Positions 8,535 through 26,249 of a stretch of DNA of 50,331 nt are shown one piece after another. Positions within the stretch are counted from its first letter, which is position 1. Every line of letters begins with the position of its first letter. The DNA is from Ruminococcus sp. GTDB lineage: Bacteria > Bacillota > Clostridia > Oscillospirales > Ruminococcaceae. Where the stretch lies: the NCBI GenBank assembly GCA_017460665.1, contig JAFUAO010000069.1, positions 1 through 50,331 of the forward strand, written 5' to 3'. A model generated the notes under the pieces. The model searched no databases, was not told the origin of the DNA, and saw nothing but the letters and a program-made list of their open reading frames with translations. The translations under genes were made by a program, and so were the position numbers.

Positions 8535-8563
8535 ATGATAACACACATTCACAAAAAATTCAA
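8535..8563 (-). promoter_or_regulatory. Probable promoter of the GH43-GH30 operon
   Basis: On the minus strand TTGAAT (8563-8558) and TATCAT (8540-8535) are 17 bp apart, giving a leader of about 70 nt before the GH43 start. The match to consensus is moderate. Confidence 0.5.
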
Positions 8564-8577
8564 CACTTTTTGAGTTT

Positions 8578-9079
8578 TTTAGTTTTAAGTTATGAGTTAT
8601 TAGTGCTTAGTAGGGACGGCCAATGGCCGTCCGTGCCTCCTCGAAAATTTGTAGGGGAGGCCGCCCTCGGCCTCCCGGAAACTGGACAATGTGTATTGAA
8701 ACGGACTGTAGGGGGCGATCCCTAACCGGGACCCGTCCCCTCTGTCAGCTTCGCTGACATCTCCCCACACTGTGGGGAGTCACCCACATCGCCCCTCCTT
8801 ATATGGAAGGTGCCATGGTATAATTGTAGGGGCGAACATCGTTCGCCCGGTGGTCATACAAAAATGGCCGGGCGCACAATGTGCGCCCCTACAATTTGTT
8901 CCCGGAGATCCGATTGATCGGGCGGGACGTCGAGGACGCCGTCCCCTACGGTCACACAGGTCATGCGGACGGTGGGTGGCCGTCCCTACATTAAAATTTC
9001 GTCCGCCGTTAGGCGGACACCACAACTAATAACTACGCACTAATAACTTGAAACTGTACGCACTAATAACTCGAAACTA
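8578..9079. repeat. Half-kilobase array of unlike short palindromes bounded by inverted AT-rich ends
   Basis: No gene is supported. At least eight hairpins with different sequences lie in a row: GGACGGCC-GGCCGTCC (about 8613-8632), GGGAGGCC-GGCCTCCC, GTCAGC-GCTGAC with TCCCCACA-TGTGGGGA, GGGGCGAAC-GTTCGCCC (about 8829-8849), GGGCGCAC-GTGCGCCC (about 8872-8889), a GGGACGTCGAGGACGCCGTCCC segment, GGACGG-CCGTCC and GTCCGCC-GGCGGAC (about 9001-9017). Many carry the flank GTAGGGG or CCCCTACA. The left end (8578-8605) and the right end share GCACTAATAACT plus AAACTAAAAA in opposite orientation, and 9034-9056 is tandemly repeated at 9057-9079 with one change. It looks like a nested build-up of small non-autonomous repeats. 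Confidence 0.7.
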
Positions 9080-9107
9080 AAAAGGACTGCGTGAGCAGTC
9101 CTTTTTT
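9079..9107 (-). terminator. Rho-independent terminator of the kinase/regulator operon
   Basis: AAAAAGGACTGC pairs with GCAGTCCTTTTT around a GTGA loop. On the minus strand it overlaps the stop codon of the sensor kinase and ends in a T tract. Confidence 0.8.
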
Positions 9108-10425
9108 AGCTATGTACGGCCTCCATGGGGAGCCTGAAAGTCACCTCCAGCCGGAACACGCCTCCCTCGGCCTTAGCCGTGAGCGTCCCGTCCAGCTCCT
9201 TCACCGCCCGGCGCATATTCCTCATGCCGAAGCCGTGATCCTTCTTGTCCTGCTTCGATGTGGAGCCGGGCTCCGCAGTCTCCGAGCAGGGATTTGTCAC
9301 CGTAAGGATCTGCACTCCGCCCCTCACCGTGCCACGGATCACGATCCGCTTCTCCGCCTCCCCCTCGTATCGGCAGCAGCCCTCAACAGCGTTGTCGATA
9401 GCGTTGAAAAGAACGGTACACAGGCTGAAGATCGGGATCTCGCCGGAGATCGCCCCCGAGAAGTCGAGGGTGCAGCCGTGCTCCGCCGCCAAGCTGTACT
9501 TGCTGTTAAGGATAGCATCGGCGAAATCGTTGCCGCTCTTGATCGTATCCGTGCGGAAGGGCGAGCCCTCGATCATGGCGTGGAGGTACTCCACCGCCTC
9601 GTCGGTCTTGTTCTTTTTCAGCAGAGCGTTAAGGCACTGCAAATGGTTCTTGTAATCGTGGCGGAAGCTCCTGATCTCGTTTGCCATGAGGCCGGACTTT
9701 TTGTAGTATTCCGCCTGAGTCAGCATCTGGCCCGACAAGAGCTCCGAGGCCTGCTTGTACTGCATCGCCGAGAAGAACATCTTCAGCATATAGATGACTG
9801 TGGTGCAGGAGAGTATTATCAGGAAGATCACCAGTATGCTGATCATGGGAGCTCTCACGGAGGAGGGTATGAAGACTGCGGAGACGAATGCGCTCAGCAG
9901 GCTCAGCAGGAACACCAGTGCCAGAGCTACTCCGGCTATGCTTTTCGGGAGAGATCCGATGTAGGCCGCAAGGCTCAGCCGCTGAGACTGCCTTTTTTTC
10001 AGCAGCACCAGCAGGAAGACCAGGTCGAACACCAGTGACACCAGCTTCGCCGGCAGCATACTATCGTCCCTTACGCTGAAGAGCTTCAAGAGCAGCGCCG
10101 TCAGCGAGGACAGCAGCGAGTCCGCCATAAGGAACATCACCGAGCAGTAAAGGGCCTTAAGCCTGTCCTTTTTGCAGACCAGTATTATGGTCAGGAAGAG
10201 CAGTGCGTACATACCGGCGAAGGTCAGGATCCTGACCCTCAGCGGCAGTCCGTCGAAGTAGAACAGGCACGACAGCGCCCCGTATGGCACAAGGAGCAGC
10301 AGGCTCCTCTTCTTTATCCTATCCGGGAAGATCATCGCCGAGGCTATCCCCATAAGGTCCAGTCCGTAGAGGATATGGGAAAGCACCGAAACGACCGCCG
10401 GGAGCCTTTCAAGTAACGCTGTCAT
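9106..10425 (-). CDS. AgrC-like membrane sensor histidine kinase (GHKL type)
   Basis: A 439-residue sensor. Residues 1-215 form six or seven membrane helices with short loops and no extracellular domain, as in AgrC/FsrC-type receptors for secreted peptides. The cytoplasmic part has an H-box RSFRHDYKNHL (phospho-accepting His near residue 254), an N-box VLFNAIDNAVEG and a G-box DHGFGMRNMRRAV, the HPK10/GHKL pattern. Its start overlaps the end of the upstream LytTR regulator gene by 17 bp, so the two are translationally coupled. There is no agrB/agrD pair nearby; the divergent biosynthetic operon is the natural candidate source of its ligand. Confidence 0.9.
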   Translation of the reverse strand: MTALLERLPAVVSVLSHILYGLDLMGIASAMIFPDRIKKRSLLLLVPYGALSCLFYFDGLPLRVRILTFAGMYALLFLTIILVCKKDRLKALYCSVMFLMADSLLSSLTALLLKLFSVRDDSMLPAKLVSLVFDLVFLLVLLKKRQSQRLSLAAYIGSLPKSIAGVALALVFLLSLLSAFVSAVFIPSSVRAPMISILVIFLIILSCTTVIYMLKMFFSAMQYKQASELLSGQMLTQAEYYKKSGLMANEIRSFRHDYKNHLQCLNALLKKNKTDEAVEYLHAMIEGSPFRTDTIKSGNDFADAILNSKYSLAAEHGCTLDFSGAISGEIPIFSLCTVLFNAIDNAVEGCCRYEGEAEKRIVIRGTVRGGVQILTVTNPCSETAEPGSTSKQDKKDHGFGMRNMRRAVKELDGTLTAKAEGGVFRLEVTFRLPMEAVHS

Positions 10426-11122
10426 TGCTTTTCAAGAATGCGAAATACCGGCTCTGGAAGTCCTTGAACCTTCCCCGTGAGATCAGGGCACGGTGGCCGT
10501 TTTTAAGCAGTATCTCAGTTTTTGAGTATGAGGCGATCTGGTCCATGTTCACAAGGAACGAGCGGTTGGTCCGGCAGAAGCGTCCCGGGTCCAGGGCCTC
10601 CTGCAATGATGAGATGCTGTTCATATACCGATAGGCGGCATCTCCGGCGGTAACGATCGAGTAGACGTTATCGGCCTGAGCGTAGATTATATCCCGTTCA
10701 AGGACCGAAACGTTCCTGTCATGCTCCATGTCTCTCAGAAGGATCCTGCGGACGTCGGCGATCTCTCTTTGAGCGGCGTCAAGGGCTTCAAAGAGCTCCT
10801 CCTTTTCCACAGGCTTCACAAGGAAGCGAAAGATGTTGTACTTTATGCTCTCAAAGACTATATCCGGATAGCTGCTCGCAAAGACTATCCTTGTGGTGAG
10901 TGAGCGTGAGCGTATCTCCTTTATGGTATCTATGCCGTTTATGCCGTTCATCATGTAGTCGAGGATGATCACGTCGAAGCTCATATCCGAGCTCAGCAGC
11001 TCACTGCCGCTGGAAAAAGTGAAGTATCCTACAGGAACGCCTCTTTCGGCGGAATAGAGCCGGCTGAGCTCAGCGAGGCGGTCCCGGAAGATCTTTTCGT
11101 CATCGCAAATCGCAATAATCAT
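10409..11122 (-). CDS. LytTR-family response regulator
   Basis: A 237-residue regulator with an N-terminal receiver domain (Asp7/Asp8 acidic pair, phospho-acceptor Asp55 in VIILDYMMNG, conserved Lys in the LVKPVEK loop near 104) and a C-terminal LytTR DNA-binding domain (about 140-233; RTNRSFLVNM and LLKNGHRALISRGRF). LytTR proteins bind two direct repeats about two helical turns apart next to a promoter. Such repeats exist 170 bp upstream (11295-11331). RBS AGGAG lies 6 nt before the ATG. It is the first gene of an operon with the AgrC-like kinase. Confidence 0.93.
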   Translation of the reverse strand: MIIAICDDEKIFRDRLAELSRLYSAERGVPVGYFTFSSGSELLSSDMSFDVIILDYMMNGINGIDTIKEIRSRSLTTRIVFASSYPDIVFESIKYNIFRFLVKPVEKEELFEALDAAQREIADVRRILLRDMEHDRNVSVLERDIIYAQADNVYSIVTAGDAAYRYMNSISSLQEALDPGRFCRTNRSFLVNMDQIASYSKTEILLKNGHRALISRGRFKDFQSRYFAFLKSNDSVT

Positions 11123-11170
11123 AAGCTACTCCTGATCAGGTGGTGATAAGAAAGGTGGAACGTATAATGT

Positions 11171-11193
11171 ATGCCGCAGCGAGGGTGCGGCAT
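11171..11193. promoter_or_regulatory. Perfect 8-bp inverted repeat in the leader of the regulator gene
   Basis: ATGCCGCA (11171-11178) and TGCGGCAT (11186-11193) are separated by 7 nt, about 50 bp upstream of the response-regulator start. It may be an mRNA hairpin or a protein-binding palindrome; no T tract follows on either strand. Confidence 0.45.
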
Positions 11194-11259
11194 TGTGGTA
11201 ATATTAGCGAACTATAGTTGGTCAAACAATTATCTATTTCAAAAAATGTCAACATTCAT

Positions 11260-11288
11260 ATTATAGCATTTTCTTTTCATGTTGTCAA
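11260..11288 (-). promoter_or_regulatory. Consensus sigma-A promoter of the LytTR-kinase operon
   Basis: On the minus strand TTGACA (11288-11283) and TATAAT (11265-11260) are exactly 17 bp apart and the -10 is preceded by TGC. It starts a leader of about 130 nt. Confidence 0.85.
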
Positions 11289-11294
11289 GGCGGA

Positions 11295-11331
11295 GGACCA
11301 TTCACAAAAAAAACGGACCGCTCACAAAAAA
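11295..11331. promoter_or_regulatory. Direct repeats, candidate LytTR regulator binding site between divergent promoters
   Basis: GGACCATTCACAAAAAA (11295-11311) and GGACCGCTCACAAAAAA (11315-11331) differ at two positions and are spaced 20 bp apart, about two helical turns. A weaker third copy, CCGTTTACAAAAAAA, starts at 11333 and contains the -35 of the plus-strand promoter. The repeats end 4 bp before that -35 and 6 bp from the -35 of the opposite promoter. Period and placement fit LytTR regulators (AgrA, ComE, VirR); the sequence itself does not match their published boxes closely, so the partner is inferred. Confidence 0.65.
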
Positions 11332-11335
11332 TCCG

Positions 11336-11363
11336 TTTACAAAAAAAGGGATAATGCTATAAT
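11336..11363 (+). promoter_or_regulatory. Promoter of the divergent biosynthetic operon
   Basis: TTTACA (11336-11341) and an extended -10 TGCTATAAT (TATAAT at 11358-11363) are 16 bp apart, with direct repeats immediately upstream. Transcription would start about 30 nt before the 13-codon micro-ORF. Confidence 0.8.
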
Positions 11364-11399
11364 GGTAAAGGTAAAAATTTAAGAAAGAGGAAATGTGCA

Positions 11400-11441
11400 A
11401 TGATCTGGGATATTTTAAGATCGCTTTTCGGGAGGCCCTAA
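11400..11441 (+). CDS. 13-residue micro-ORF, possible signal or leader peptide
   Basis: This encodes MIWDILRSLFGRP. AAGAGG lies 9 nt before the ATG, better spaced than for the overlapping ATG at 11393 (which would give 22 residues ending GSPSA). It is the first frame after a strong extended -10 promoter. The stop codon lies in the loop of a hairpin, GGAGGCCC/GGGC-t-CTCC (11431-11451), and a second hairpin CCGCT-tag-AGCGG follows at 11454-11466 before the ribosome-binding site of the next gene. The peptide is hydrophobic/amphipathic (I2, W3, I5, L6, L9, F10). It could be a leader controlling downstream translation, a peptide substrate of the operon's enzymes, or the ligand of the adjacent AgrC-like kinase. 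That it is translated is an inference. Confidence 0.45.
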   Translation: MIWDILRSLFGRP

Positions 11442-11489
11442 GGGGCTCTCCTTCCGCTTAGAGCGGAGAAGAAAAAAGAAAAGGAAGGA

Positions 11490-12776
11490 ATGATAACGAT
11501 AAGAAAGCATGCATTTTTCATCCCCACTACCCGTCAGTGCAGCGCTCCGGTGGAGAGCGCCCTCGAGGAGATAAGCCAGTATCAGCTCGAAGAGGACGAG
11601 ACAGTGGACTTTGTGCTCCTTGAGCAGAACAGGGACAAGATCTCTGCCGCCAACGGCCGGGCTTTGAAGGAGTATCAGAAGCAGTACCCTAACATCAGTA
11701 TGTACCACATCTACGCCGAGGACATCGACCGCTTCTGTGTTTCATATCTGGTAAAGACCAGAGATATGGACCCGGAGGAGGCCGCCGAGTGCTTCGGCCA
11801 CGTCTACTCCTACGGCATGACCTACAACAGGATCTTCATCATCGCCGCACTTCTGGGAGCAGACTACATACACCGCCGGGACTCCGACGTTTACACTCAG
11901 CACATCGACGGCAGGAACCTGAGCCCCTTCGAGATGGAGATGAAGTACCTCGGCAAGCGCCTGAGCAGCGTCTCCAAGAAGCGCCCGGACGACGACAGCA
12001 TGGTCTATATGGTGGGTGGAGCCTACCGTGGCAACTGGCCTATCAGCTATCAGGACATCGCCGCAAAGGACCTTGGCATTGTCTATAAGCTGATCAAGAA
12101 CGGCCGCCCGGAGGAGTCCGACGCTGAGATCGTGGACTTCGTCCAGAAGAAAATGGTCCGGGGTTGCGCCGAGGTCTATGAGAAGGACAAGGTGGAGCAC
12201 TACTCCAAGGACATGGTAGAGGTGGGCTCACAGGCCATATACAAGGTCTTCCAGTACCTGCCGATCCCCCCGGCAGAGCAGACCTCCGGCCTTGACTACA
12301 TGATAAACTTCATGCTGGAGTGCTCCGACAGCCCGATCGTCTACCACAACCGCCGTGTCCACCACGTCTACACAGACGAGCGCCAGGGCCAGCGCTGGAA
12401 CGAGAAGTACCACATCGGCCTTGCGGAGTACCGTGCATGGTACCCGGTGAACAAGAAGCTGAAGGACGTTTTCTCAGGGAGCGATGAGAAGGACTACGCC
12501 ACGATCTCGCTGACCATGGCCAAGGAGCTGGAGGGCATCGACTGGAGCAGCATACGCTCCCAGCAGGCCGAGATGCTCCACAGGATGTCAGACCTGTACA
12601 AGGAGAGCGGCAACGACAACTACATCGGCGCCGCCGGTGTCATCGAGGACAGCATAGATCAGATCATCGACAAGGTAAAAGAAAGCGTCAGCGCATATAA
12701 GGCTCTGCTGATCAACTGGGGCGCCCTTATGGAATACGCCTCAAAGAGCTCAGTGAAGAGCGTTTGCAGAGCATGA
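11490..12776 (+). CDS. DUF6271-like protein, possible GT-A-fold glycosyltransferase
   Basis: A 428-residue soluble protein with no signal peptide. I recognise similarity to an uncharacterised family (DUF6271), from memory. The N-terminus HAFFIPTTRQC followed by alternating strands and helices and a GADYIHRRDSDV segment at about residues 126-137 looks like a nucleotide-sugar-dependent GT-A fold with an acidic DxD-type motif. The C-terminal third is helical. AAGGAAGG precedes the ATG by 1-2 nt. It is the first full-length gene of an operon of eight frames with gaps of 3-36 bp, so it probably takes part in building the same product as the kinase, nucleotidyltransferase and GT2 genes behind it. 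Substrate unknown. Confidence 0.75.
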   Translation: MITIRKHAFFIPTTRQCSAPVESALEEISQYQLEEDETVDFVLLEQNRDKISAANGRALKEYQKQYPNISMYHIYAEDIDRFCVSYLVKTRDMDPEEAAECFGHVYSYGMTYNRIFIIAALLGADYIHRRDSDVYTQHIDGRNLSPFEMEMKYLGKRLSSVSKKRPDDDSMVYMVGGAYRGNWPISYQDIAAKDLGIVYKLIKNGRPEESDAEIVDFVQKKMVRGCAEVYEKDKVEHYSKDMVEVGSQAIYKVFQYLPIPPAEQTSGLDYMINFMLECSDSPIVYHNRRVHHVYTDERQGQRWNEKYHIGLAEYRAWYPVNKKLKDVFSGSDEKDYATISLTMAKELEGIDWSSIRSQQAEMLHRMSDLYKESGNDNYIGAAGVIEDSIDQIIDKVKESVSAYKALLINWGALMEYASKSSVKSVCRA

Positions 12777-12789
12777 AAGGAAGGAAGCA

Positions 12790-13488
12790 ATGACAGGATT
12801 TATCAACTATAACATCGACTACGTTATCAAATTCGGCGGCAGTATCCTTGAGGACTTCGAGGCCTGCAAGAAGACCGTTAAGGCCATATCGAAGCTGCCC
12901 GGACTGGGCGTCAGAGTGCTGGTAGTGCCCGGCGGCGGCCCCACAGACAACACTATCGAGCGCCTTGACAAGACCGCACACTTCGTGCCCTTCACCCACC
13001 ATAAGGCCTGCGCCCGTGCTCAGGACCAGACCGGCCTCATGATCTGCGATCCGGTATTCGGCGACACCTTCGCTCCCTGCCAGACCTTCGAGGAGGTCAA
13101 CGAGGCGACTGCTGCCGGAAAGGTGCCGGTGCTGCTGCCCTCCTACACGATCTTCGCCTGCGACCCCTTCGAGCGCTGCTGGGAGATCACCTCTGACGCA
13201 ATGGCAGCCTGGTATAGCTGGTTCGTCCACAGCAAGAACATCATCATCATCACCAATGTTGACGGCGTATACCCCTCCGACAAGATCGGTCAGGAGGGAG
13301 CTCTCATCTCCGAGATCACCGCAACTGACCTTATAAAGTACGGCCACAACGCCGTTGACGCCTGCACAGCGCCCTTCTTAAAGGAGAACGGGATCAACTG
13401 CTGGATCGTCAACGGGAGCTCTCCCGAGAGAATCATCGACATCGTTCAGGGCAGAAAGACAGTCGGCACCTTCATCAAGGGAGAATGA
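12790..13488 (+). CDS. Amino-acid-kinase-family protein (UMP-kinase-like)
   Basis: A 232-residue single-domain member of the amino acid kinase superfamily. Visible motifs: VIKFGGSIL at 12-20 (phosphate-binding Lys14 and glycines), PGGGPTDN at about 48-55, EITSDAMAAW at about 135-144 and TNVDGVYPSD at about 156-165. The length and lack of a regulatory ACT domain resemble UMP kinases, the molybdenum-storage protein and the small-molecule phosphate kinases of the same branch rather than aspartokinases. It probably phosphorylates a carboxylate or a monophosphate intermediate in the operon's pathway. A start 13 bp after the previous stop, with GAAAGGAAGG, supports co-translation. It is not the housekeeping pyrH by context. 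Confidence 0.85.
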   Translation: MTGFINYNIDYVIKFGGSILEDFEACKKTVKAISKLPGLGVRVLVVPGGGPTDNTIERLDKTAHFVPFTHHKACARAQDQTGLMICDPVFGDTFAPCQTFEEVNEATAAGKVPVLLPSYTIFACDPFERCWEITSDAMAAWYSWFVHSKNIIIITNVDGVYPSDKIGQEGALISEITATDLIKYGHNAVDACTAPFLKENGINCWIVNGSSPERIIDIVQGRKTVGTFIKGE

Positions 13489-13491
13489 GCC

Positions 13492-14811
13492 ATGGAGAAC
13501 CTTGAAAGCAAGCTGAGGCAGGGCCTCCTCGGGATGACCGTGTACTCTCCGGACGTTCACGCCTCGGGGATCAGCGGCGACATCGACGAGTTCATCGCCC
13601 GGCGCACGGGACTTGTGCCGGTGCTGAGACACAGGCTCTGCCATACGGCCGCTTCGATCGAGAGATTTTACGCCACCGGCGTACACAAGAACGTTCCCAA
13701 CTGGCATCATGTGGTGGACTTCTTCACCGGCGGCCCCTCCCTGATCACCTTCTGGTACGGCGAGGAGGCTATCGACAGGCTCAACTCCGTCAAGGGCAAG
13801 AGCCACCCGGCAAGAGCCGCTGCGGACACCGTCCGGGGACACTTTTTCTGCGACAACGCAGTCTGCAACCTGATACATACCAGCGACGACGTGCCGGAGC
13901 TCATCCGTGAGCTGACGGCTGCTGAGTGCTACGGCCTGCTGAAGGCCCCCTTCACCGGCAAGGCCGTTCCCAGCGAGGGCTTTTCTCAGGGAGAGCCTGA
14001 GCTCCGCCACAACGGAGCCTACACCTTCCTGAAGGTCATGGGCAGGATCCTGGGCCGTGACGTGGAGACAGATCCCGGCAGCTTCGAGGGCTCGGCAGAG
14101 CTTTACGGCGCCTGCATCGGGGAGCTACGCTCCATGGCGGAGCAGGCACCTGCGCCGGAGAGAAAGCTGATCTCCGCCTTCCTCCGGGGGGACGAGACAG
14201 TTGCCGCTGAGCTGGAAAAGTACGGCGCCTCCCCCCAAGAGCGCTTCATCGTGGCCTGCTCTGCTGCCACCCGGTCAGGCTGGGAGGAGCAGACCGGCCT
14301 TCTTGACGCAGTTACCGAGCTCCTTGGCCGGCTGGAGGGCATCGAGGGCTTCTTCATCGGAGGGAGCAGTGCAGCAAGGCTCTACGGCTACAAGTGCCTT
14401 CCCGACGACATCGACGTGATCTGCACCGACAAGGCACTGGGAGAGATCGCAGAGCGGCTGGGCCTGAAAATAAAGCGGGCCGAGAAGAGCTTCGGCAGCT
14501 ACAGCTATTGCAGTTACAGTTTCGCCGGCTATGAGGTGGAGTTCTCCACCATGGCGGACTACGCAAAGGGCTACAAGATCCTGATCGACAGCGAGATGCT
14601 GGCCCGGTCCGCCGGACAGATCCCCCTTATGCCCCCTGAGGACCTGATCTGCGAGCTGTACTCCCTCAGCCGCACAGACTATCACGACGACATCGTCAGA
14701 GCAAAGAAATACCGCAGCTTCTTCGGCAGCGCCCTTGATACGGAGTATCTGGAAAGGCGCTTCACAGGCAGCGGCATAGGAGAGGCAGCCCTTGCCGATC
14801 TTATGGGCTGA
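13492..14811 (+). CDS. NDP-kinase-like domain fused to a nucleotidyltransferase-fold domain
   Basis: A 439-residue two-domain protein. Residues 15-145 align by eye with nucleoside diphosphate kinases: FFTGGPSLITFWYGEEAID (78-96), TVRGHFFCDNAVCNLIHTSDD (113-133, taken in two parts) with the catalytic His129 in the NLIHTSD motif. The usual KPD motif near the N-terminus is SPD (Ser19 replaces Lys), so activity may be changed. After a helical linker, residues 285-410 look like a MNT/AbiEii-type nucleotidyltransferase: FFIGGSSAARLYG (287-299) and LPDDIDVI (303-310), with a third acidic position likely in YEVEFST. It starts 3 bp after the kinase stop. A kinase, an NDP-kinase-like domain and a nucleotidyltransferase in tandem suggest stepwise phosphorylation and nucleotide activation of one compound. 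I know of no named family with this fusion. Confidence 0.7.
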   Translation: MENLESKLRQGLLGMTVYSPDVHASGISGDIDEFIARRTGLVPVLRHRLCHTAASIERFYATGVHKNVPNWHHVVDFFTGGPSLITFWYGEEAIDRLNSVKGKSHPARAAADTVRGHFFCDNAVCNLIHTSDDVPELIRELTAAECYGLLKAPFTGKAVPSEGFSQGEPELRHNGAYTFLKVMGRILGRDVETDPGSFEGSAELYGACIGELRSMAEQAPAPERKLISAFLRGDETVAAELEKYGASPQERFIVACSAATRSGWEEQTGLLDAVTELLGRLEGIEGFFIGGSSAARLYGYKCLPDDIDVICTDKALGEIAERLGLKIKRAEKSFGSYSYCSYSFAGYEVEFSTMADYAKGYKILIDSEMLARSAGQIPLMPPEDLICELYSLSRTDYHDDIVRAKKYRSFFGSALDTEYLERRFTGSGIGEAALADLMG

Positions 14812-14824
14812 GGAAGGAGGCAAA

Positions 14825-15685
14825 ATGAAAAAGATCTCAGTCATCATACCCACCTACAACAGGAGCTTCCTGCTCTCAGTGACCCTCAATTCCCTCTGCG
14901 ACCAGACCCTTCCGGCGCAGGACTTCGAGGTGATCGTGGCGGACGACGGCTCCTCCGACAACACAAGAGAGATCCTTGAGGAATACTACCGCTGGCTGGA
15001 CATAAAGTACCAGTTCCAGGAGGACAAGGGCTTCCGTGTGGCCAAGGCCAGGAACATGGGCATAGCCAGCGCCGAGGCGGAGCTCTGCCTCTTCGTGGAC
15101 TCAGGGGTCTACCTTGACAGGAGATGCCTTGAGGAGCACGTCAGGCTCTATGAGCAGGAGAAATGGGACGTGGTCATCGGCAACGTCTACGGCTTTTCCT
15201 CAAAGCAGGACTACCGCTTCTCGCTGAAGGAGAGGCTCTCGGAGATCGGGATCGCCGCCACTCTGAAGGAGTGCGTGGACACCGGCTCCTACAAGGACAC
15301 AAGGATCCCCCACTACGAGAAATACGGCGGAGACATCTCAGGTCTTCCGGCGCCGTGGGTGTTCTTCTGGACCTGCCACGTCGCAGTCACCACGGATATG
15401 CTCAAAAAGGCCGGCTGCTTCGATGAGGCCTTCACCTCATGGGGGGCCGAGGACCTGGAGCTGGGCTACCGGCTCTTCTGTCAGGGAGCTAAGTTCCACT
15501 TCGGAGAAACTGCCATCTCCCTCCACTACCCCCACGACCACGACCCCAAGGAGCAGAAGAAGAGCGACAGGAACAACCTTGAATACTTCCACAAAAAACA
15601 CAACAACGATGTAACAAAGCTGCTTACCGAGATCCATATCATGGAGATCAACGACAGGCTGTTGACCACGGCAGGCAAGATATGA
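14825..15685 (+). CDS. GT2-family glycosyltransferase
   Basis: A 286-residue cytosolic glycosyltransferase of the GT-A fold. ISVIIPTYNRS (4-14), VIVADDGSSDNT (36-47), the acidic VDSG at 91-94 in place of a classical DxD, and FTSWGAEDLELGYRL (near 205-220), the ED motif of the galactosyltransferase C-terminal region seen in chondroitin-synthase-like GT2/GT27 proteins. The N-terminal Met chosen is the one 6 nt after AGGAAGGAGG; an upstream ATG at 14792 lies inside the previous gene. It has no membrane segment, so a soluble or small acceptor is likely. The operon has no polysaccharide polymerase or flippase, only a MATE exporter. Confidence 0.88.
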   Translation: MKKISVIIPTYNRSFLLSVTLNSLCDQTLPAQDFEVIVADDGSSDNTREILEEYYRWLDIKYQFQEDKGFRVAKARNMGIASAEAELCLFVDSGVYLDRRCLEEHVRLYEQEKWDVVIGNVYGFSSKQDYRFSLKERLSEIGIAATLKECVDTGSYKDTRIPHYEKYGGDISGLPAPWVFFWTCHVAVTTDMLKKAGCFDEAFTSWGAEDLELGYRLFCQGAKFHFGETAISLHYPHDHDPKEQKKSDRNNLEYFHKKHNNDVTKLLTEIHIMEINDRLLTTAGKI

Positions 15686-15721
15686 CTATCATATTCGCAT
15701 GATAAAGAGGAGAAATGAAAA

Positions 15722-17053
15722 GTGAGTACTACTACAACAGCAACAACATCTACACAAACAGCATCAACTGACAACGCAGAGCTCAAAAAGTATCTTTTCA
15801 GAGGAGAGTACGACATCCACGACCTGACCTTCGACAGGTGCGAGGGGATCTACCTCTGGGACACTGACGGAAGAAGATATATCGACACCGCTGCCGGCAC
15901 CTTCAATCTCAGCCTTGGCTACACCAACAAGGAGGTAGTGGAGACTGCCAAAGAGCAGTGCGACAAGATGATCCACCTTTCCTCTTCATATTTCAACGAG
16001 AACGTGCTCCAGCTGGCCAAAAAGCTGGTGGAGGTATCTCCTGAGAACCTGACCAGAGCACACCTCAAGGTCAGCGGCGGATCCACAGCCAACGAGGGCG
16101 CTGTGAAGCTCTCACAGTACTACACAGGCAAGCGTGAGGTGATCAGCTACTACATGAGCCACGTCGGTCAGACGATCTTCATGCAGGAGGCCTCGGGCCT
16201 TTCCTTCCGCAGGTCCAAGTTCGACTTCGGTATCGGCGGGATCTCTCATGTGCAGTACCCCTACTGCTACAGGTGTCCCTACGGCCACGGGAACTGCGAG
16301 AACTGCGGACTTGAGTGTCTCAATGAGCTGAAGAACTACATAGCCTACGGCTCCAGCGGAGACATCGCCTGCCTGATCATCGAGCCTATACAGGGCAACG
16401 GCGGCAATCAGGTGCCGCCTAAGGCCTATTTCAAGGAGCTGAAAAAGATCTGTGACGACAACGGCATCGTGCTGATCTTCGACGAGATCCAGACCGGTGT
16501 CGGACGTACAGGAAAGATGTACGCCGCCCAGCACTTCGACGTTCAGCCCAACATCATCACTACTGCAAAGGGCCTCGGCGGAACAGGCTTCCAGATCGCC
16601 GGCATACTCATGGAGGAGAAGTTCAACCGCATGGAGAGCTTCCTCCACTCCTTCACCTATGGAACGAATATCCTCAGCGTTACGGCTGCTCTGAAAACTC
16701 TCAGCATCATCGACGACCCCAAGTTCCTCAACAACGTGACGGTCTGCGGCCAGTACATCATGGACAGGCTGAGAAAGATGCAGGACAAGTACGAGTTCAT
16801 CGGCGACGTCCGTGGAGTAGGCCTGATGATCGGCTTTGAGATCGTCAAGGACCGCAAGACCAAGAAGGCCGACCGTGAGCTGACTCTCCAGATCGTACAC
16901 AGAGCTCTTGACCAGTACGGCCTTATGCTGAGGAGCTCTCTCTACGGCTTCGGCAACGTCCTGAAGATCCGTCCTGCACTGAACATCACCATGGATCAGT
17001 GCGAGGAGATGATGGACATCCTCGACGAGTGCCTTGCCTCCTTCGACCACTGA
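15722..17053 (+). CDS. Class III (PLP-dependent) aminotransferase
   Basis: A 443-residue fold-type I aminotransferase of the acetylornithine/GABA/diaminobutyrate class. PLP-binding Lys283 is in TTAKGLGG, the Asp that contacts the pyridine nitrogen is in LIFDEIQTGVGRTG (251-264), and the phosphate-binding region is SGGSTANEGAVK (118-129). A Cys cluster (182, 185, 192, 195, 199) marks a sub-branch. The start is GTG with AGGAG 9 nt upstream; the first 18 residues are a low-complexity Ser/Thr run. An overlapping micro-ORF in another frame (15715-15771) shares the start region. In the operon it would install or remove an amino group on the product or supply an amine building block. Confidence 0.9.
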   Translation: MSTTTTATTSTQTASTDNAELKKYLFRGEYDIHDLTFDRCEGIYLWDTDGRRYIDTAAGTFNLSLGYTNKEVVETAKEQCDKMIHLSSSYFNENVLQLAKKLVEVSPENLTRAHLKVSGGSTANEGAVKLSQYYTGKREVISYYMSHVGQTIFMQEASGLSFRRSKFDFGIGGISHVQYPYCYRCPYGHGNCENCGLECLNELKNYIAYGSSGDIACLIIEPIQGNGGNQVPPKAYFKELKKICDDNGIVLIFDEIQTGVGRTGKMYAAQHFDVQPNIITTAKGLGGTGFQIAGILMEEKFNRMESFLHSFTYGTNILSVTAALKTLSIIDDPKFLNNVTVCGQYIMDRLRKMQDKYEFIGDVRGVGLMIGFEIVKDRKTKKADRELTLQIVHRALDQYGLMLRSSLYGFGNVLKIRPALNITMDQCEEMMDILDECLASFDH

Positions 17054-18429
17054 TGATAAGACGGTATCTAAGGACGCTCCTTCACGACCTAAGGGGCATA
17101 AGCGCCATAGCGGTCCCCCTTGTCTTTCAGGGCCTTGTGTATCAGCTCCAGACCCTGACTGACAGGAAGTTCCTTGGCAACCTTGACATAAAGTACCTTT
17201 CCGTGGTGGGGAACACGATCTTCCCCTTCAATATCACCACTGCCGTGATCTCCGCCTTCGGGATTGGCATCACCATAAAGATCGCTCAGAGCTCAGAGGA
17301 CAGGGAAAAGGGCGTAGAGGACTACTGCAACAGGATCCTCATCTACAACACCCTGATCGGAGCAGTTATCGCTCTAGCGTGGGCAGTCCTTGCGGGGGCG
17401 GTCTTCCGGGGCATGGGCGTCAGCTCAGAGCTGCTGCCCTACTGCACCAAATACGTCAGAGTGCTCTGTCTCTTCGTGCTGCTGCTGGGACTGGACAGCG
17501 CTGTTCAGGCTACCCTGCAGGGCCTTGGGCAGACCAGGCTGATCTTCGGCGTGGGCGTCGTGAAGGTGGTGCTGAACGTTATCTTCGACATACTCTTTAT
17601 ATTTGGCAGGCTGGGGCTCCCTGAGCTGGGAGTCGTCGGCGCCGCCCTCGGAACGAGTCTGGCCAACATCATCGCTAACATCATAACTATCGTCGCAATA
17701 AAGAAGCTGCACTATTTCGACCTAAAGATCGTCGGCTGCATAAGGCGCCGCAGCCCTGAGCGCTTTAAAGAGGTGGTACAGACCGGGCTCCCGGCCAGTA
17801 TCGAGACCTTTATCTGGCATATGAGCAATCTTGTGCTGGTGCGCTTCATGAACAGCCTTGACGATCTTTCCGTGGGCATATACACACTTATCTACAACCT
17901 TGAGATCACCGTTTACCGGGTCTACTACGGCTATGCAAAGGGACTTGTCACCGCCGCAGGCCGCAGTATCGGCAAGCGCCGCTACGACCGGGCCTACAGC
18001 AAGGGAGTCAGCCTCATGACGGCGGACGTCCTTTTCTGGGCAGTGGTCTGCGTGGTGTCCGTGGTCTTTGCGTCCCAGATCCTCGGGGTCTTCATCCACG
18101 ATGAGAAGGTAGTCGCTGACAGCCGGATCTACGTTTATTTCACCGCAGTCTGCATACTGCCCAAGTCCCTCAACTCGATCGTGGGCTCAGGCATAAGAGC
18201 AGCCGGCGACACCAAGTGGATGCTCTTCACTCAGATCATCGGCAGCGTCATCGTCATATCCAGCGCCTATATCCTGATCGAAAGGCTCGAAATGGGGCTT
18301 TTGAGCATATACATCACCCTTATCATCGATGAGTCGGTGAGGTGTATCCTCAACCTTATCCACTACAGACTAAAGTTCCGCCGGCTCATGGCGGAGGAGA
18401 GGAGCGTGGAGCTGTGCTCAGATTTTTAG
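17053..18429 (+). CDS. MATE family exporter of the biosynthetic operon
   Basis: A 458-residue twelve-helix MATE protein. The hydrophobic halves, the LGLPELGVVGAALGTSLAN stretch typical of the family and the second-half start TGLPASIETFIWHMSN are visible. The start ATGA overlaps the aminotransferase stop (TGATGA), which sets the start and shows translational coupling. Being inside the operon, it probably exports the product; MATE pumps often serve as self-resistance or export for small metabolites. It differs clearly from the MATE protein at 435-1811. Confidence 0.92.
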   Translation: MIRRYLRTLLHDLRGISAIAVPLVFQGLVYQLQTLTDRKFLGNLDIKYLSVVGNTIFPFNITTAVISAFGIGITIKIAQSSEDREKGVEDYCNRILIYNTLIGAVIALAWAVLAGAVFRGMGVSSELLPYCTKYVRVLCLFVLLLGLDSAVQATLQGLGQTRLIFGVGVVKVVLNVIFDILFIFGRLGLPELGVVGAALGTSLANIIANIITIVAIKKLHYFDLKIVGCIRRRSPERFKEVVQTGLPASIETFIWHMSNLVLVRFMNSLDDLSVGIYTLIYNLEITVYRVYYGYAKGLVTAAGRSIGKRRYDRAYSKGVSLMTADVLFWAVVCVVSVVFASQILGVFIHDEKVVADSRIYVYFTAVCILPKSLNSIVGSGIRAAGDTKWMLFTQIIGSVIVISSAYILIERLEMGLLSIYITLIIDESVRCILNLIHYRLKFRRLMAEERSVELCSDF

Positions 18430-19103
18430 GCTCAGGGAGCGCCTTTGACGCCTTCCGCTGCGATACCAGCGCCTATTTTCGCCGGGGAGACACTCTCTTT
18501 ATGATCGACTGCGGCAGCACCGCCTTCAAGTGCGCTCTCAGGAAGCGGATCTTCGAGGGGGCAGAGCGTGTCTGCGTAATCCTCACTCACCTTCATATGG
18601 ACCACTGCGGCAGCCTCAGCCAGCTCGTGATGTATCTGCTGTACAAGTGCGGCGTGAAGCCTGTCATAGTGTTCCCGGACCGTGACGTGAGGGAGCTCCT
18701 TCGGATCACGGGAGTGGGGCCGGATATGTACGTCCATATCTCCGGAAGAGGAGCAGAGCTCCCCGAGGGAGTGAAGGTCCGCTATCTGGAGTCCGCCCAT
18801 GTGGACACCATAAACTGCTATTCGCTGGAGCTCTCCCTCCCCGGCGGAGACGAGATCTACTACAGCGGAGACTCCGGTGCGATACCCGATGCCGTTTTGG
18901 AGAAGTTCCTTGACGGCGGCTATAAGGCCTTCTATCAGGACACCACCGGAGAGCGGATCCAAGGCACGGTCCACCTGCACATCGAGGACCTCTGCCGGCT
19001 GATCCCCGAGGACCAAAGGGGCAGGGTATACTGTATCCACCTTGACCCCCTCCTCACCGAGGAAAGGGTCCGCAGACGGGGCTTCAACTCCGTTGAGATC
19101 TGA
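18414..19103 (+). CDS. Metallo-beta-lactamase-fold hydrolase
   Basis: A 229-residue MBL-fold protein with THLHMDHCGS (the HxHxDH metal motif, residues about 60-69), a later ESAHVDT histidine, YYSGDSG with the bridging Asp, and a final CIHLDP histidine. This is the two-metal set of RNase Z/PhnP-like phosphodiesterases. I take the GTG at 18414, with GGAGGAGAGGAG upstream, which overlaps the MATE end by 16 bp; the earlier ATG at 18342 is deep in the MATE gene. It is the last gene of the operon before a strong terminator. It may cleave a phosphodiester or ester in product maturation or self-protection. Confidence 0.85.
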   Translation: MLRFLGSGSAFDAFRCDTSAYFRRGDTLFMIDCGSTAFKCALRKRIFEGAERVCVILTHLHMDHCGSLSQLVMYLLYKCGVKPVIVFPDRDVRELLRITGVGPDMYVHISGRGAELPEGVKVRYLESAHVDTINCYSLELSLPGGDEIYYSGDSGAIPDAVLEKFLDGGYKAFYQDTTGERIQGTVHLHIEDLCRLIPEDQRGRVYCIHLDPLLTEERVRRRGFNSVEI

Positions 19104-19120
19104 CATGACACTCACCCATC

Positions 19121-19145
19121 GGCGGCCATTGGCCGCCATTTTTTT
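19121..19145 (+). terminator. Terminator of the biosynthetic operon
   Basis: GGCGGC-CATTG-GCCGCC, then A and seven Ts, 17 bp after the MBL-fold stop codon. Confidence 0.9.
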
Positions 19146-19148
19146 GCC

Positions 19149-19178
19149 TTGACAGAGCTCCTTTTGGGGTGGTATAAT
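19149..19178 (+). promoter_or_regulatory. Promoter of the RecQ-like helicase gene
   Basis: TTGACA (19149-19154) and TATAAT (19173-19178), 18 bp apart, 22 bp upstream of the helicase start. Confidence 0.8.
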
Positions 19179-19200
19179 TTACAGGAGATGAGGTGAGAGG

Positions 19201-22200
19201 ATGAGCTATACCAGACAGGAGCTGGCTGCCCTTGACCGGGAGGAGCTGGAGAAGATCTTTTGCAGCGTCATGGGCGTTGAGGGCTTCATGCCCTATCAGT
19301 ATGAGGTCATAGCGGCAATGCTCCGTGGGGAGGACGTTATGGCAGTAATGCCCACGGGAAGCGGAAAATCTGCCTGCTTCCAGTTCCTTGCGGCGGTCTC
19401 TGAGGGCGTCACTATAGTGGTGGAGCCCATAACTGCCCTTATGGAGGATCAGGTCAGGCGGGCAGGAGCTCTCTCGATCCCGGCCCAGATCCTGAGCAGG
19501 TCGATCTCCGCCCAGAAGGTGAAGTCGGTGCTGCCGGAGCAGAAGCTGCTCTTCCTCTCGCCGGAGACCCTTACTCACCCGAAATTCATGGCGCTGGCAA
19601 GGGAGCACCTGCCGGATATCTCCATGCTGGTGGTGGACGAGGCCCACTGCATACCTCTGTGGGGAGCCTCCTTCCGGCCGGCCTTCCTGCGTATCTCCGG
19701 GTTTTTCCGGACCCTTGGACGCCGTGTCCAGACCGCCGCCTTCACCGCTACCTCCACTCCCGGCATGGAGCTACAGATCAAGCTGGCCCTTGGCATGGAG
19801 GAGCCCTTTGAGCTCCGCCGGGAGCTGGACCCCGACAGCCAGAGGGCCCTCTTTGAGATGACGGGGCTGGATATGCAGGTGGTCCAGATCTCCGACAGGT
19901 ACTACGAGCAGACCCACTATCTGGTGCTCCACGACCTGCTGCTCCCCGATAAGGAGCCCAAGGCCAAGGGCAAACAGTACCTCCTGAGCCGGGCATACAA
20001 GGCCATTTTCCCCAAGGATCCCAGCCAGAGCACCGACCTGCCGGAGAGCACTGTGAACAGCTGCCGGGTGGTGAAGAGGTGGCTTTCCCTCCGCAGGACC
20101 TACGACAGGCTGAAAAAGGCCGGGACTGTCACCGAGAAGGCCTATCACCGCTATCGGCGCAGGGCGGTCTACGCCTATGAGGACTACCGCCGCAGGGTCC
20201 TGGACAAGGCCATGCTCAGGGACAAGTACCAGCGGCTGGTCAGCGACCTGATCTGGTCCTGCGGCCATTTTGAGGAGGGCAGCAAGATCATCGTCTACTG
20301 CACCCTGAGAAGGACGGTGGACCTGCTGTGGGAGAGGCTCTCATCGGAGGAGGAGCTGCTCTCACGGGGAATCGGAGTGCTCCGCTACCACGCCGGCATG
20401 GAGGGCCCAGAGAAGCGCTCCAGCGCCCTTGACCTTGCCGAAAAGCCCGAATGCAGGGTGATGCTGGCAACGATCGCCTTCGGCATGGGGATCGACAACA
20501 AGGACGTCCGCATGGTCATAAATTACGAGTTCCCCCACGACGTCGAGAGCTATTATCAGGAGATCGGCCGTGCCGGACGTGACGACAGACCGGCGGCCTC
20601 GCTGCTGTACTTCTACCGTCCCGACATCAAGAGGCTGGAGAAGATCGCCGATAACAGGAAGAGGTCCGATGCCGAGGGCCAGAGCGCAGAGGAGCTCCTT
20701 CGGGAGGCCCAGCGTGATCTGTCAGGCAAGCGCCTTCGGGAGATGCTGGCCGTGGCGGACAGCGGCAGCAGCTCGGTGGAGACCGACCGGCTGATCCAGC
20801 ATTTCCTTGGGGCCGAGGACGGGGACCAGCCGCTCAGCGAGGACATGAGGACCGTTTGCAGCTCCCCCGGCAGCCTCTACATGAACGTGTGCCTTCCGGC
20901 CTACCGGATCCTCCGTGGGGAGTACGAGCCCGGCCGCCCGGAGGAGTGCGTCCTCGGAAGCTCAGAGAAGAGCCCGAGGGTCAGCTTCACCCTGGAGGGG
21001 GAGCGGATCGGCTGGCTGGACATGATGCTGGCCAACGCCGTCTATACCCTGTATTTCGGGGGAGATCCCGAGGCGGATCCGGAGAAGCTCTTCGCCCTTT
21101 TGAACGGCACGGTGAAGGCCTCCCTCACCGGCGAGGACAGGGAGGAGATCCTTGGGCGCCTTAGAAAAATGGCGGCCGCTGTGATCGAGATCTCCTGGGG
21201 CGAGAGGCGCTTCCAAGGGAGGTTCCTGCCCCTTGACGAGGAGGACGGCAGGCTCCTGTGCAGGGAGACACCGCCGCTTTTCGCCTATGCAGAGGCCGAC
21301 GGCCGGAGGTTCTTCTCGGTGGATCTGAGCTGGCTCAACGTGACCGGCAGAGGCGGCAAAAAGCTGCCTATGACGCTGGAGAACGTGAAGATCCGGACCT
21401 TCATCGCCATGCGTGTACACCTTCTTCCAAGGTACCGCACCGACGCCAGAGCCGGCATGAGCGACAAGACCTTCAACAGCTTCCGGCTGATCCAGGAGGA
21501 CCGCCGGCGGAAGGGTATGTATCAGATCCTCCAGATCCCGGAGGAGCGCCAGAGAGCGGTCCGCACCACGGCAGAGCAGGTGCTGAGATACTACGTCAGC
21601 GCCGGGATCATCAGGGACTTCAAGCCCCAGAAGAGCTTCATCGGGGGCAAAAAGGAGGTCGTGGGCTACGGGATCGACATAGTCAGCGGCCCGGCGGCGG
21701 AGCTCCCGAAGGAGCTGCGGCTCTTCGGCGGGGAGGAGACCGAAAGGCTCAGAGGCGAGCTGAGCTTCTTTGACATCATGTGCCTGGGAGCAAGGCTGAC
21801 TCTGCAAGCTAAGGTCGTCAGATCGCCGGGGGAAAGGTCGGTGCTAGCCATGATCTCAGGCGATGACGAGATCTCTGCAAAGGGCGAGCTGAGGCGTGCT
21901 GCGGCGGAGAGCCTTAGCCGGACAGGGGAGGTCTCCACGGAACAGGGAGAAGTCATCATCCCCAGAAAATGGCTGGACGTGACGGGGCCCAGCGGCAAGA
22001 AGGTGGTGCCCTGTACTGCGGAGAACATAGCGCTGAGAGGCTATATCTGCTGGAAGGCGGCCCTTGGTGCGGATAGGCTGGACCTTGAGGAGTGCAGGCC
22101 TCTGCTGGCGGAGAAGGGCCGGGATAAGCAGGAGGCCTATCTCAGGAGGATGATCCCCAGCATACTGCGGCATCTTGTGCGGAAGAGGGCCTTGAAGAGC

Positions 22201-22284: not shown

Positions 22285-22303
22285 CTCTCCGGTCCTTTTT
22301 TTT
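22270..22303 (+). terminator. Terminator of the helicase gene
   Basis: CCGGAGAGC/GCTCTCCGG with loop AAGTA and an eight-T tract; the stop codon of the helicase lies in the loop and stem. Confidence 0.9.
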
Positions 22304-22428
22304 GGGTAAATATCCGGCAAAAACGAGGCCCCGACTGGAGATTTTTTTCTTCGCACTAAAGGATATAGTATACAAACAAAGAAAATGAATGTATTGTGTA
22401 TAAAATACCTGTATGGATAGGTCATTAT

Positions 22429-22486
22429 TTTCTTTGGGCCACGTACAGGCCGTGGCAATTTGTTTATTGAGGCCAAAGAAAGGTGG
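22429..22486 (+). promoter_or_regulatory. Inverted repeat reaching the ribosome-binding site of the 39-residue peptide
   Basis: TTTCTTTGG (22429-22437) is complementary to CCAAAGAAA (22473-22481), immediately before the GGTGG ribosome-binding site; a nested hairpin GCCACG/CGTGGC lies at 22438-22456. In RNA this stem would end at the Shine-Dalgarno sequence and could limit its access, as in the leaders of type I toxins. Confidence 0.5.
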
Positions 22487-22494
22487 TGATACTT

Positions 22495-26164: not shown

Positions 26165-26170
26165 ACGAAA

Positions 26171-26203
26171 AAGGGCCATAGGGAGGGTCTCTCTATGGCT
26201 CTT
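26171..26203 (+). other. Imperfect hairpin after the VirD4-like gene
   Basis: GGGCCATAG pairs imperfectly with CTATGGCTCT around a GAGGG-containing loop a few bases after the stop codon; only a weak T run follows. It may help end transcription of the cassette ahead of the stronger terminator at 26250. Confidence 0.5.
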
Positions 26204-26249
26204 ATCTGTTTACATTGATAGTCTTATTATATGTGTGATCTTAACTTAA

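What the first reader, a model, noticed from the sequence alone, without database searches (positions are those of the whole stretch)
9106..19103. A self-contained quorum-sensing-style locus with unknown product
An AgrC-like kinase and a LytTR regulator are divergent from an operon of micro-ORF, DUF6271-like, UMP-kinase-like, NDPK-nucleotidyltransferase fusion, GT2, class III aminotransferase, MATE and MBL-fold genes. Two consensus promoters face away from each other and two 17-bp direct repeats at 20-bp spacing lie between them. Seen: gene order, motifs, promoters, repeats. Known: LytTR regulators bind direct repeats at about two helical turns and commonly serve agr-like circuits. Inferred: the operon makes and exports a molecule that the kinase senses. 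No agrB/agrD, radical SAM, lanthipeptide, NRPS or PKS gene is present, so it does not fit a named class that I know.
Basis: partly seen in the sequence, partly recalled or inferred. Interest (0 to 1): 0.8.

Follow-up and report, generated by a model that had tools for sequence, protein, structure and literature searches.

The report
Tiny-peptide signalling switch in Ruminococcus
A rumen bacterium carries a sensor-regulator gene pair encoded beside a gene for a 13-amino-acid peptide; in the related bacteria examined, the same kind of pair nearly always sits beside a similarly tiny peptide gene while the genes behind it differ, which suggests that the peptide itself is a signal the sensor detects.

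Summary
In detail: an AgrC-like kinase and a LytTR regulator stand divergent from a micro-ORF and seven genes, with two near-perfect promoters and a 17-bp direct repeat between. All this is kept in Ruminococcus flavefaciens RUG10602.

The inference that the operon's product is sensed is probably wrong. The operon was found only in these two genomes; the pair recurs in 12 genera with differing cargo. What recurs with it is the micro-ORF. Of 45 pairs (kinase at least 200 bits), 42 have a divergent, Shine-Dalgarno-led, mostly Trp/Phe-rich ORF of 7-24 codons (settled by eye), two more have one placed differently. A composition-blind filter finds 39 of 45 pair regions against 9 of 163 controls.

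Direct repeats 21 bp apart lie upstream (z 10.3). AgrB was found at 0 of 50 of these kinase loci and at 7 of 26 others.

Best reading: a leaderless amphipathic micropeptide (here MIWDILRSLFGRP) is the pheromone of an AgrC-type kinase lacking AgrBD. Translation, secretion and binding are untested; the operon's product is unknown.

The parts
9106..10425 (-). AgrC-like sensor histidine kinase (SPOB_a + HATPase_c_5), 439 aa, seven TM-like segments; proposed receptor
   Evidence: 84% identical in L023
10409..11122 (-). Response regulator with LytTR DNA-binding domain, 237 aa
   Evidence: 84% identical in L023
11260..11288 (-). Promoter of the regulator-kinase genes (TTGACA-17-TATAAT)
11295..11311 (+). 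Direct repeat copy 1 (contains ACCATTCAC), proposed LytTR regulator site
11315..11331 (+). Direct repeat copy 2 (contains ACCGCTCAC), 20 bp from copy 1; the -10 box lies 36 bp after the start of the second 10-mer used
11336..11363 (+). Promoter of the micro-ORF and operon (TTTACA-16-TATAAT)
11400..11441 (+). Micro-ORF, MIWDILRSLFGRP, with GAGG ribosome site at 11387-11390; proposed leaderless pheromone
11431..11467 (+). Two hairpins over and after the micro-ORF stop; the second keeps its stem in L023 through a T-A to A-T change
11490..12776 (+). DUF6271 protein with conserved HRRDSD motif; biosynthetic, function unknown
12790..13488 (+). Amino-acid-kinase-fold kinase, best NCBIfam hit MfnE (below its cut-off)
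13492..14811 (+). NDK domain fused to a nucleotidyltransferase-like C-terminal part
14825..15685 (+). Family 2 glycosyltransferase
15722..17053 (+). Class III aminotransferase
17050..18429 (+). MATE transporter (start uncertain; ORF opens at 16999); second-best NCBIfam hit is the tryglysin-associated WgkD, below its cut-off
18342..19103 (+). MBL-fold hydrolase (ORF as opened by GTG at 18342; true start uncertain)
19121..19137 (+). Intrinsic-terminator-like hairpin at the operon's end

Best explanation
The locus is a self-inducing peptide-signalling module with a biosynthetic operon attached. The micro-ORF makes a 13-residue leaderless amphipathic peptide (proposed fMIWDILRSLFGRP). It reaches the outer membrane face, by an exporter not identified here, and binds the multi-pass membrane part of the AgrC-like kinase. 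The kinase phosphorylates the LytTR regulator, which binds the 20-21 bp direct repeat just upstream of the -35 box and switches on the micro-ORF (positive feedback) and the operon behind it. The operon then makes and exports (MATE) an unknown small molecule, perhaps a phosphorylated or nucleotidylated, glycosylated amino compound.

Shown by sequence: all parts, their order, conservation, recurrence and promoter architecture. Inferred: translation, secretion, binding, activation. Guessed: the class of product.
For: Recurrence: a divergent SD-led micro-ORF at 42 of 45 kinase/regulator pairs with kinase score of at least 200 bits (chosen by eye, partly with relaxed rules, after seeing the sequences), plus L179 and L186 in other positions. 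Filtered counts: strict composition filter 29 of 45 pairs against 1 of 207 control upstream regions and 123 of 5000 shuffles; composition-blind filter 39 of 45 against 9 of 163, Trp 13.3% against 3.0%.

Coding: window against L023 2 synonymous and 0 non-synonymous codon changes, while the spacer after the stop has indels. Over nine comparisons with changes (two share L182), 21 synonymous against 5 non-synonymous.

Circuit: direct-repeat spacing enriched at 21 bp (z 10.3) and 20 bp (z 4.1), at most z 2.2 elsewhere. A -10 box (5 of 6 or better) in 28 of 33 sites with clear repeats, 34-47 bp from the second repeat in 27 (some of the 33 are near-copies, no shuffle control).

Receptor: peptide similarity follows the kinase's membrane part (rho 0.27, 0 of 2000 permutations) better than its catalytic part (0.10, 180 of 2000).

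Replacement of AgrBD: on a kinase tree one side of 51 rows holds 44 micro-ORF loci and no AgrB; the other 22 rows hold 7 AgrB and no micro-ORF. Amphipathic helix: moment z 6.6 at 100 degrees. Different cargo.
Against: No expression, secretion or binding data exist here. No exporter for the peptide was identified, and the MATE gene belongs to this cargo. The receptor-peptide correlation is modest and co-inheritance could give part of it (RR rho 0.20, 16 of 2000). The final 42 peptides were chosen by eye, so their Trp content is not an unbiased figure. L110 (regulator ORF of 139 aa only) has no such ORF; L197 and L198 have neither the ORF nor a recognised regulator; L203 and L238 group with the clade on the tree without one. 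30 of 50 clade loci also carry a DUF5085-like protein which this model does not explain and which the window lacks. Trp-rich leader peptides can also be attenuators.
Confidence: 0.6

Rival explanations
1. One reading: the operon's small-molecule product is the ligand of the kinase, and the micro-ORF is incidental.
For: Products that induce their own clusters are known (recalled). Pair and operon are together in both genomes that were found to have the operon.
Against: The same kinase clade stands beside other operons in other genomes, and the micro-ORF is the recurrent partner. Its codons are conserved by synonymous change.
Confidence: 0.1
2. The micropeptide acts inside the producing cell or its own membrane on the kinase, as a co-inducer rather than a secreted signal between cells.
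For: No exporter was identified. The peptides are predicted short amphipathic helices that could enter the membrane from inside, and the kinase's sensor part is membrane-embedded.
Against: The LCP precedent shows leaderless peptides that are secreted (PMC10518010, passages read). Peptide diversity that follows receptor diversity fits strain-specific signalling.
Confidence: 0.15
3. The micro-ORF is an effector: a tiny antimicrobial or membrane-active peptide controlled by the pair, which senses something else.
For: Amphipathic, Trp/Phe-rich; resembles the start of staphylococcal delta-toxin/PSMs (recalled). Up to three copies in a row, as in L117.
Against: Its constant place beside the regulator, differing cargo behind it, and similarity that follows the sensor domain fit a signal better.
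Confidence: 0.1
4. The micro-ORF is a leader peptide for attenuation; the hairpins behind it control read-through into the operon.
For: Trp-rich family; the window's peptide ends Arg-Pro-stop; two hairpins follow in both genomes, one with a compensatory change.
Against: No U-run terminator follows the hairpins. Residues other than Trp are conserved too. The cargo proteins examined with Pfam are not amino-acid biosynthesis, and repeated copies in L113 and L117 each have their own repeats and -10 box.
Confidence: 0.05

Closest known systems
Agr quorum sensing (AgrBDCA)
   Same: AgrC-type multi-pass GHKL kinase plus LytTR regulator with paired sites; autoinduction. Some more distant kinases found here do sit near AgrB.
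   Different: No AgrB found in the genome or at any of 50 clade loci, no AgrD-like precursor seen; the peptide has 13 residues and no leader.
Leaderless communication peptides (LCP/SIP) with RopB
   Same: Ultrasmall ORF with its own ribosome site, generally divergent from its regulator (PMC13361665, passages); peptide without leader, hydrophobic and Trp-containing, e.g. MWLILLFL (PMC10518010, passages).
   Different: The LCP receptor is a cytosolic RRNPPA regulator. Here the neighbour is a membrane histidine kinase with a LytTR regulator. The term 'histidine kinase' does not occur in the main text of PMC10518010.
ComCDE / BlpABCHR type peptide circuits
   Same: Membrane kinase with LytTR regulator; direct repeats two helical turns apart (recalled for ComE).
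   Different: No double-glycine leader, no peptidase-containing ABC transporter in the locus.
AAK-NDK-NTase gene sets on Sinorhizobium, Roseibium, Rhizobium and Acinetobacter plasmids
   Same: Kinase 41-44% identical (Sinorhizobium, Roseibium, Acinetobacter); in the three alphaproteobacteria a long NDK and an NTase-like protein follow it, and a class III aminotransferase (20-22% identical to the window's) follows in two. The Acinetobacter NDK, a few kb away on the other strand, is fused as in the window.
   Different: No DUF6271 annotated, no micro-ORF circuit described; products unknown.

Membership tests
Agr system | AgrC-type kinase | tested here: met
   GHKL 1.9e-16; AgrC model hit 1.9e-7, far below its cut-off
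Agr system | LytTR response regulator | tested here: met
   LytTR 1.4e-15
Agr system | AgrB protease/exporter | tested here: not met
   0 matches in the own genome (92.9% complete); 0 of 50 clade loci (model built from five AgrB proteins found here)
Agr system | AgrD precursor with leader, macrocycle and charged tail | tested here: not met
   The only SD-led hydrophobic short ORF found in the divergent region is 13 codons, without Cys; AgrD elsewhere in the genome was not sought
LCP-RopB system | Leaderless ultrasmall ORF with ribosome site beside the receptor gene | tested here: met
LCP-RopB system | Cytosolic RRNPPA (Rgg/RopB) receptor | tested here: not met
   The adjacent regulators are a membrane kinase and a LytTR regulator; Rgg genes elsewhere in the genome were not sought
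LCP-RopB system | Peptide is secreted and activates the receptor | not testable with these tools
   needs mass spectrometry and reporter assays
Double-glycine peptide circuits (ComCDE) | Precursor with GG leader and C39 ABC exporter | tested here: not met
   13-residue ORF without GG; no ABC gene in the operon
RiPP cluster | Micro-ORF is the substrate of the operon's enzymes | tested here: inconclusive
LytTR-regulated promoter | Paired direct repeats about two helical turns apart upstream of -35 | tested here: met
   binding itself not tested

The most novel reading that the evidence does not exclude
A whole family of quorum-sensing systems, found here in 12 genera of the window's family, uses genome-encoded, ready-made micropeptides of mostly 7-17 residues as ligands of AgrC-type membrane kinases. 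It arose inside the Agr kinase family by loss of AgrBD, and serves as a portable switch for antibiotic and other operons. Peptide and sensor domain co-diverge, giving many private signalling dialects.
Probability: 0.55. Interest if true: 0.88.

Novelty: new variant of a known kind. Interest (0 to 1): 0.8.

Why it matters
Peptide signals for membrane kinases are, as far as I know, made as precursors and then processed or cyclised. If a bare 7-17 residue ORF is enough, the ligands of dozens of orphan kinases in gut and rumen bacteria can be read straight from the genome and synthesised cheaply. That would make it directly testable which peptides switch on silent antibiotic clusters, such as the thiopeptide-like cluster in L109, in anaerobes that are hard to manipulate. 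It also gives a rule for finding them: a divergent micro-ORF behind a 21-bp direct repeat beside an AgrC/LytTR pair.

Tried and rejected

AgrB in the own genome: none found. Rfam: no RNA family at E up to 1 over 8549-19300.

A motif-only search (SD + ATG + W-D-I) in 125 genus genomes was too loose: it matched 84 genomes, mostly out of frame, and its listing was cut. Among listed matches, five genomes show the known pair loci (G000, G954, G937, G989, G1023). I inspected ten other sites picked from the listing as possibly in frame; none was a free-standing SD-led micro-ORF. Not every listed site was inspected.

Phage records: only an ordinary NDK. In 298 other genomes of the phylum the listed NDK matches looked ordinary and covered only the NDK part (list cut); a fused homologue exists on an Acinetobacter plasmid.

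The C-terminal half of the NDK fusion gave no credible solved relative, no Pfam hit and no plasmid match.

Papers: ten searches. Nothing I saw in them describes leaderless peptides for LytTR-coupled kinases. I read passages of PMC10518010, PMC13361665 and PMC13289728; the rest I saw as search listings. The library lacks most subscription papers and all bioRxiv preprints, so this does not prove absence from print.

Selection and dropped rows: I fetched the 28 best places besides the two operon genomes, leaving out a second G1037 copy, 32 of 36 further places (G1177, G1092, G178, G157 not fetched); all 15. The search profile A4 was built from eight kinases after micro-ORFs had been seen beside seven of them. 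Of the 62 loci, L192 had no called kinase gene and 11 had no adjacent regulator (L104, L180, L197-L200, L203, L204, L207-L209), which leaves 50 pairs, 45 of them at 200 bits or more. Three short kinases (L199, L200, L240) were left out of the tree. In one search the AgrB model was built from five of the seven AgrB proteins that it then counts, and the DUF5085-like model from ten of the 30.

Full report
WHAT IS THERE. The window lies in a Ruminococcus genome: its kinase, regulator and operon proteins are 83-99% identical to those of R. flavefaciens RUG10602, locus L023, which by matching contig coordinates is genome G954 of the same genus. The promoters match the consensus in 12 and 11 of 12 positions and face apart. 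The direct repeat (15 of 17 identical, 20 bp apart) lies between them. In L023 both promoters, the repeats and the micro-ORF are kept. The micro-ORF differs by two synonymous changes only, while the spacer after its stop has indels and many substitutions.

THE OPERON IS RARE. DUF6271 was found in 1 of 247 genomes of the family (the window's own), in 3 of 391 of the class including the window, and in 2 of 125 of the genus. A scan of 84,980 species genomes with one conserved pattern gave 58 DUF6271 loci (relatives without that pattern are missed). By tblastn at E up to 1e-5 only L023 among the 58 has the AAK, NDK fusion, MBL, kinase and regulator. Relatives of GT2, aminotransferase and MATE occur in one other locus each (L079, L024, L027); a more sensitive search of called ORFs also gave MATE in L041, L077 and L079 and weak GT2 in L024, L025 and L039.

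DUF6271 itself occurs in other natural-product settings: with split transketolase genes on Apilactobacillus kunkeei plasmids and in Streptomyces clavuligerus, and, by my reading of the sequences, with PhyH-type dioxygenases, PLP decarboxylase-like proteins, GNAT proteins and transporters in several phyla. The window's kinase is 41-44% identical to enzymes on Sinorhizobium, Roseibium and Acinetobacter plasmids. In the first two and in Rhizobium sp. 007 a long NDK and an NTase-like protein follow it; a class III aminotransferase follows in Sinorhizobium and Roseibium. In Acinetobacter the NDK lies a few kb away on the other strand and is fused as in the window (22.7% identity over 344 aa, 2e-19). 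So the operon shares a recurrent but uncharacterised biosynthetic gene set. My guess at the product is inference from enzyme families only.

THE SIGNALLING PART IS COMMON. Relatives of the kinase were collected from the genus, the family (35 of 396 genomes at E up to 1e-40) and the class (15 of 161 genomes), and neighbourhoods of most of the best were read. Beside the regulator, on the opposite strand, is nearly always a tiny ORF with a ribosome site. Examples: MFIWDILNWFI, MIWDILSWFMP, MWNDIMKAIGNLF, MFWDIFKKIFG, MGGFWDFIFGR, MGDFLDWLFGGRK, MWRYIWQIIFG, MSWLGYLWYWILGK, MTWSTIIDFLFG, MQDWFDFWGWFL. Of 45 kinase/regulator pairs with a kinase score of at least 200 bits, 42 have one within 700 bp of the called regulator start, all divergent. 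In L179 one lies behind the kinase on the same strand, and in L186 between the two genes. L110, whose regulator ORF is only 139 aa, has none.

These 42 were settled by eye, partly with relaxed rules, so I also give filter counts. With a composition filter: 29 of 45 pairs, 1 of 207 control upstream regions from the same loci, 123 of 5000 dinucleotide shuffles of the 50 pair regions, 0 of 5 more distant pairs. Without a composition filter: 39 of 45 pair regions against 9 of 163 control regions; Trp makes up 13.3% against 3.0% of the residues after the first. At the 15 class-level loci no Trp/Phe-rich SD-led micro-ORF was seen; one of them, L247, begins too close to the contig end to tell. Counting L179 and L186, the loci come from the window's genus and 11 other genera of its family (genus labels).

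WHY A CODING, REGULATED SIGNAL. Between close copies, nine comparisons with changes (two of them share L182) give 21 synonymous and 5 non-synonymous codon changes. The peptides are amphipathic as helices: mean hydrophobic moment at 100 degrees z 6.6 over shuffles and below chance at 160-180 degrees, for 33 distinct peptides of at least 9 residues. Upstream of the micro-ORFs, direct repeats are enriched at a spacing of 21 bp (z 10.3; 13 of 40 non-redundant sites with at least 9 of 10 identical) and at 20 bp (z 4.1); the highest z at any other spacing from 11 to 33 is 2.2, at 19. The repeat core, by my reading, resembles CCGTTTACTCC. In 33 sites with clear repeats (some near-copies of one another) a -10 box with at least 5 of 6 matches was found in 28, and in 27 of these it starts 34-47 bp after the start of the second repeat (no shuffle control). 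This is the layout expected of autoinduction by the regulator; binding was not tested.

WHY THE PEPTIDE RATHER THAN THE PRODUCT. Cargo behind the micro-ORF differs: a thiopeptide precursor (PF19409, 4.5e-13) with ABC genes and a protein weakly like lantibiotic dehydratase (1.4e-5, below cut-off) in L109; a radical-SAM enzyme with a weakly carrier-protein-like partner (0.001, below cut-off) in L105 and L106; a class III aminotransferase with an ABC transporter in L113, L116 and L117; and a dockerin protein about 780 bp away that may not belong in L103. In 37 non-redundant loci, peptide similarity follows identity of the kinase's membrane part (rho 0.27; 0 of 2000 permutations as high) better than that of its catalytic part (0.10; 180 of 2000) or the regulator (0.20; 16 of 2000). 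The effect is modest and co-inheritance contributes.

RELATION TO AGR. AgrB was not found in the genome nor at any of the 50 loci with a kinase of at least 200 bits from genus and family; it was found at 1 of 11 lower-scoring loci of genus and family and at 6 of 15 of the class. The model for this count was built from five of those seven, which Pfam confirms as AgrB; L205 and L245 were found by the model alone. One class-level locus, L238, scores 250 bits and groups with the micro-ORF kinases but has neither a micro-ORF nor a regulator beside it. On a kinase tree of 73 rows, one side (51 rows, support 98/92) has 44 micro-ORF loci, 7 with neither and no AgrB; the other side (22 rows) has 7 AgrB, 15 with neither and no micro-ORF. 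The micro-ORF label needs 6 changes on the tree, against 22.9 for shuffled labels. Of the 7 with neither, L104 and L180 are cut by contig ends. Some branches are long, and the root is at the midpoint, so the direction (AgrBD lost, micropeptide gained) is inferred.

COMPARISON WITH KNOWN SYSTEMS. The nearest described signals that I found are leaderless communication peptides such as MWLILLFL of Streptococcus salivarius, which act on cytosolic RopB (PMC10518010, passages). The window's system shares the ultrasmall ORF, but its neighbour is a membrane kinase. It shares kinase and regulator type with Agr but lacks AgrB and AgrD at the locus. I therefore call it a new variant of peptide quorum sensing, not a member of either family.

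WEAK POINTS. Nothing here shows translation, export or binding. A DUF5085-like protein accompanies 30 of 50 clade loci, and 2 of 15 class-level loci, but not the window's closest kin (Pfam matches to DUF5085 itself are weak); it is unexplained. Attenuation by a Trp-rich leader and an effector role for the peptide remain possible.

Noticed in passing
L110-L122, L181-L218 (30 of 50 clade loci): A DUF5085-like protein of about 150 aa lies near the micropeptide module, often directly behind the micro-ORF (e.g. L182:8454-8906). It is absent from the window's subclade and may be a third signalling component.
   Followed up: partly
window 19201-26400: A RecQ-like helicase and mobile-element-looking genes lie between the MBL gene and the NifS-like gene (27102-28292, by my reading); in L023 the NifS-like gene follows the MBL gene closely, so this block looks like an insertion or a deletion in the relative.
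   Followed up: no
L109:3-4340: Thiopeptide precursor (PF19409) with ABC transporter genes and a weakly lantibiotic-dehydratase-like protein directly behind the micropeptide MFWDIFKKIFG: a candidate antibiotic cluster with a readable inducer.
   Followed up: partly
L105:821-4631 and L106:8056-11867: Radical-SAM enzyme with a weakly carrier-protein-like 94-aa protein and a DUF1611 protein behind the micropeptide MWNDIMKAIGNLF; no obvious substrate peptide noticed.
   Followed up: partly
L219, L221, L222, L220: AAK + long NDK + NTase-like protein, with class III aminotransferase nearby in L219 and L222, on Sinorhizobium, Rhizobium, Roseibium and Acinetobacter plasmids; an uncharacterised biosynthetic set, beside a PEP-mutase/isocitrate-lyase-family gene in Rhizobium sp. 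007.
   Followed up: partly
L006:15176-22765: Plasmids of honeybee Apilactobacillus kunkeei carry DUF6271 with split transketolase, aminotransferase, methyltransferase and ATP-grasp-like genes: a candidate natural-product cluster.
   Followed up: no
L008:10952-16268, L040:4626-8982, L041:8995-14456: Recurrent cassette, by my reading of the sequences: DUF6271, PLP decarboxylase-like protein, GNAT and MFS or MATE transporter, with a PhyH-type dioxygenase in L008 and L041, across Actinomycetota, Gammaproteobacteria and Clostridia; no described product known to me.
   Followed up: no
window 11431-11467: Two hairpins over and after the micro-ORF's end, one kept in L023 with a compensatory T-A to A-T change; possibly sets the expression ratio of peptide to operon.
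   Followed up: partly
L117:3900-4560, L113:4690-5020, L185:2431-2565, L108:8106-8570: Two or three successive copies of the micro-ORF; in L113 and L117 each copy has its own repeat and -10 box.
   Followed up: no
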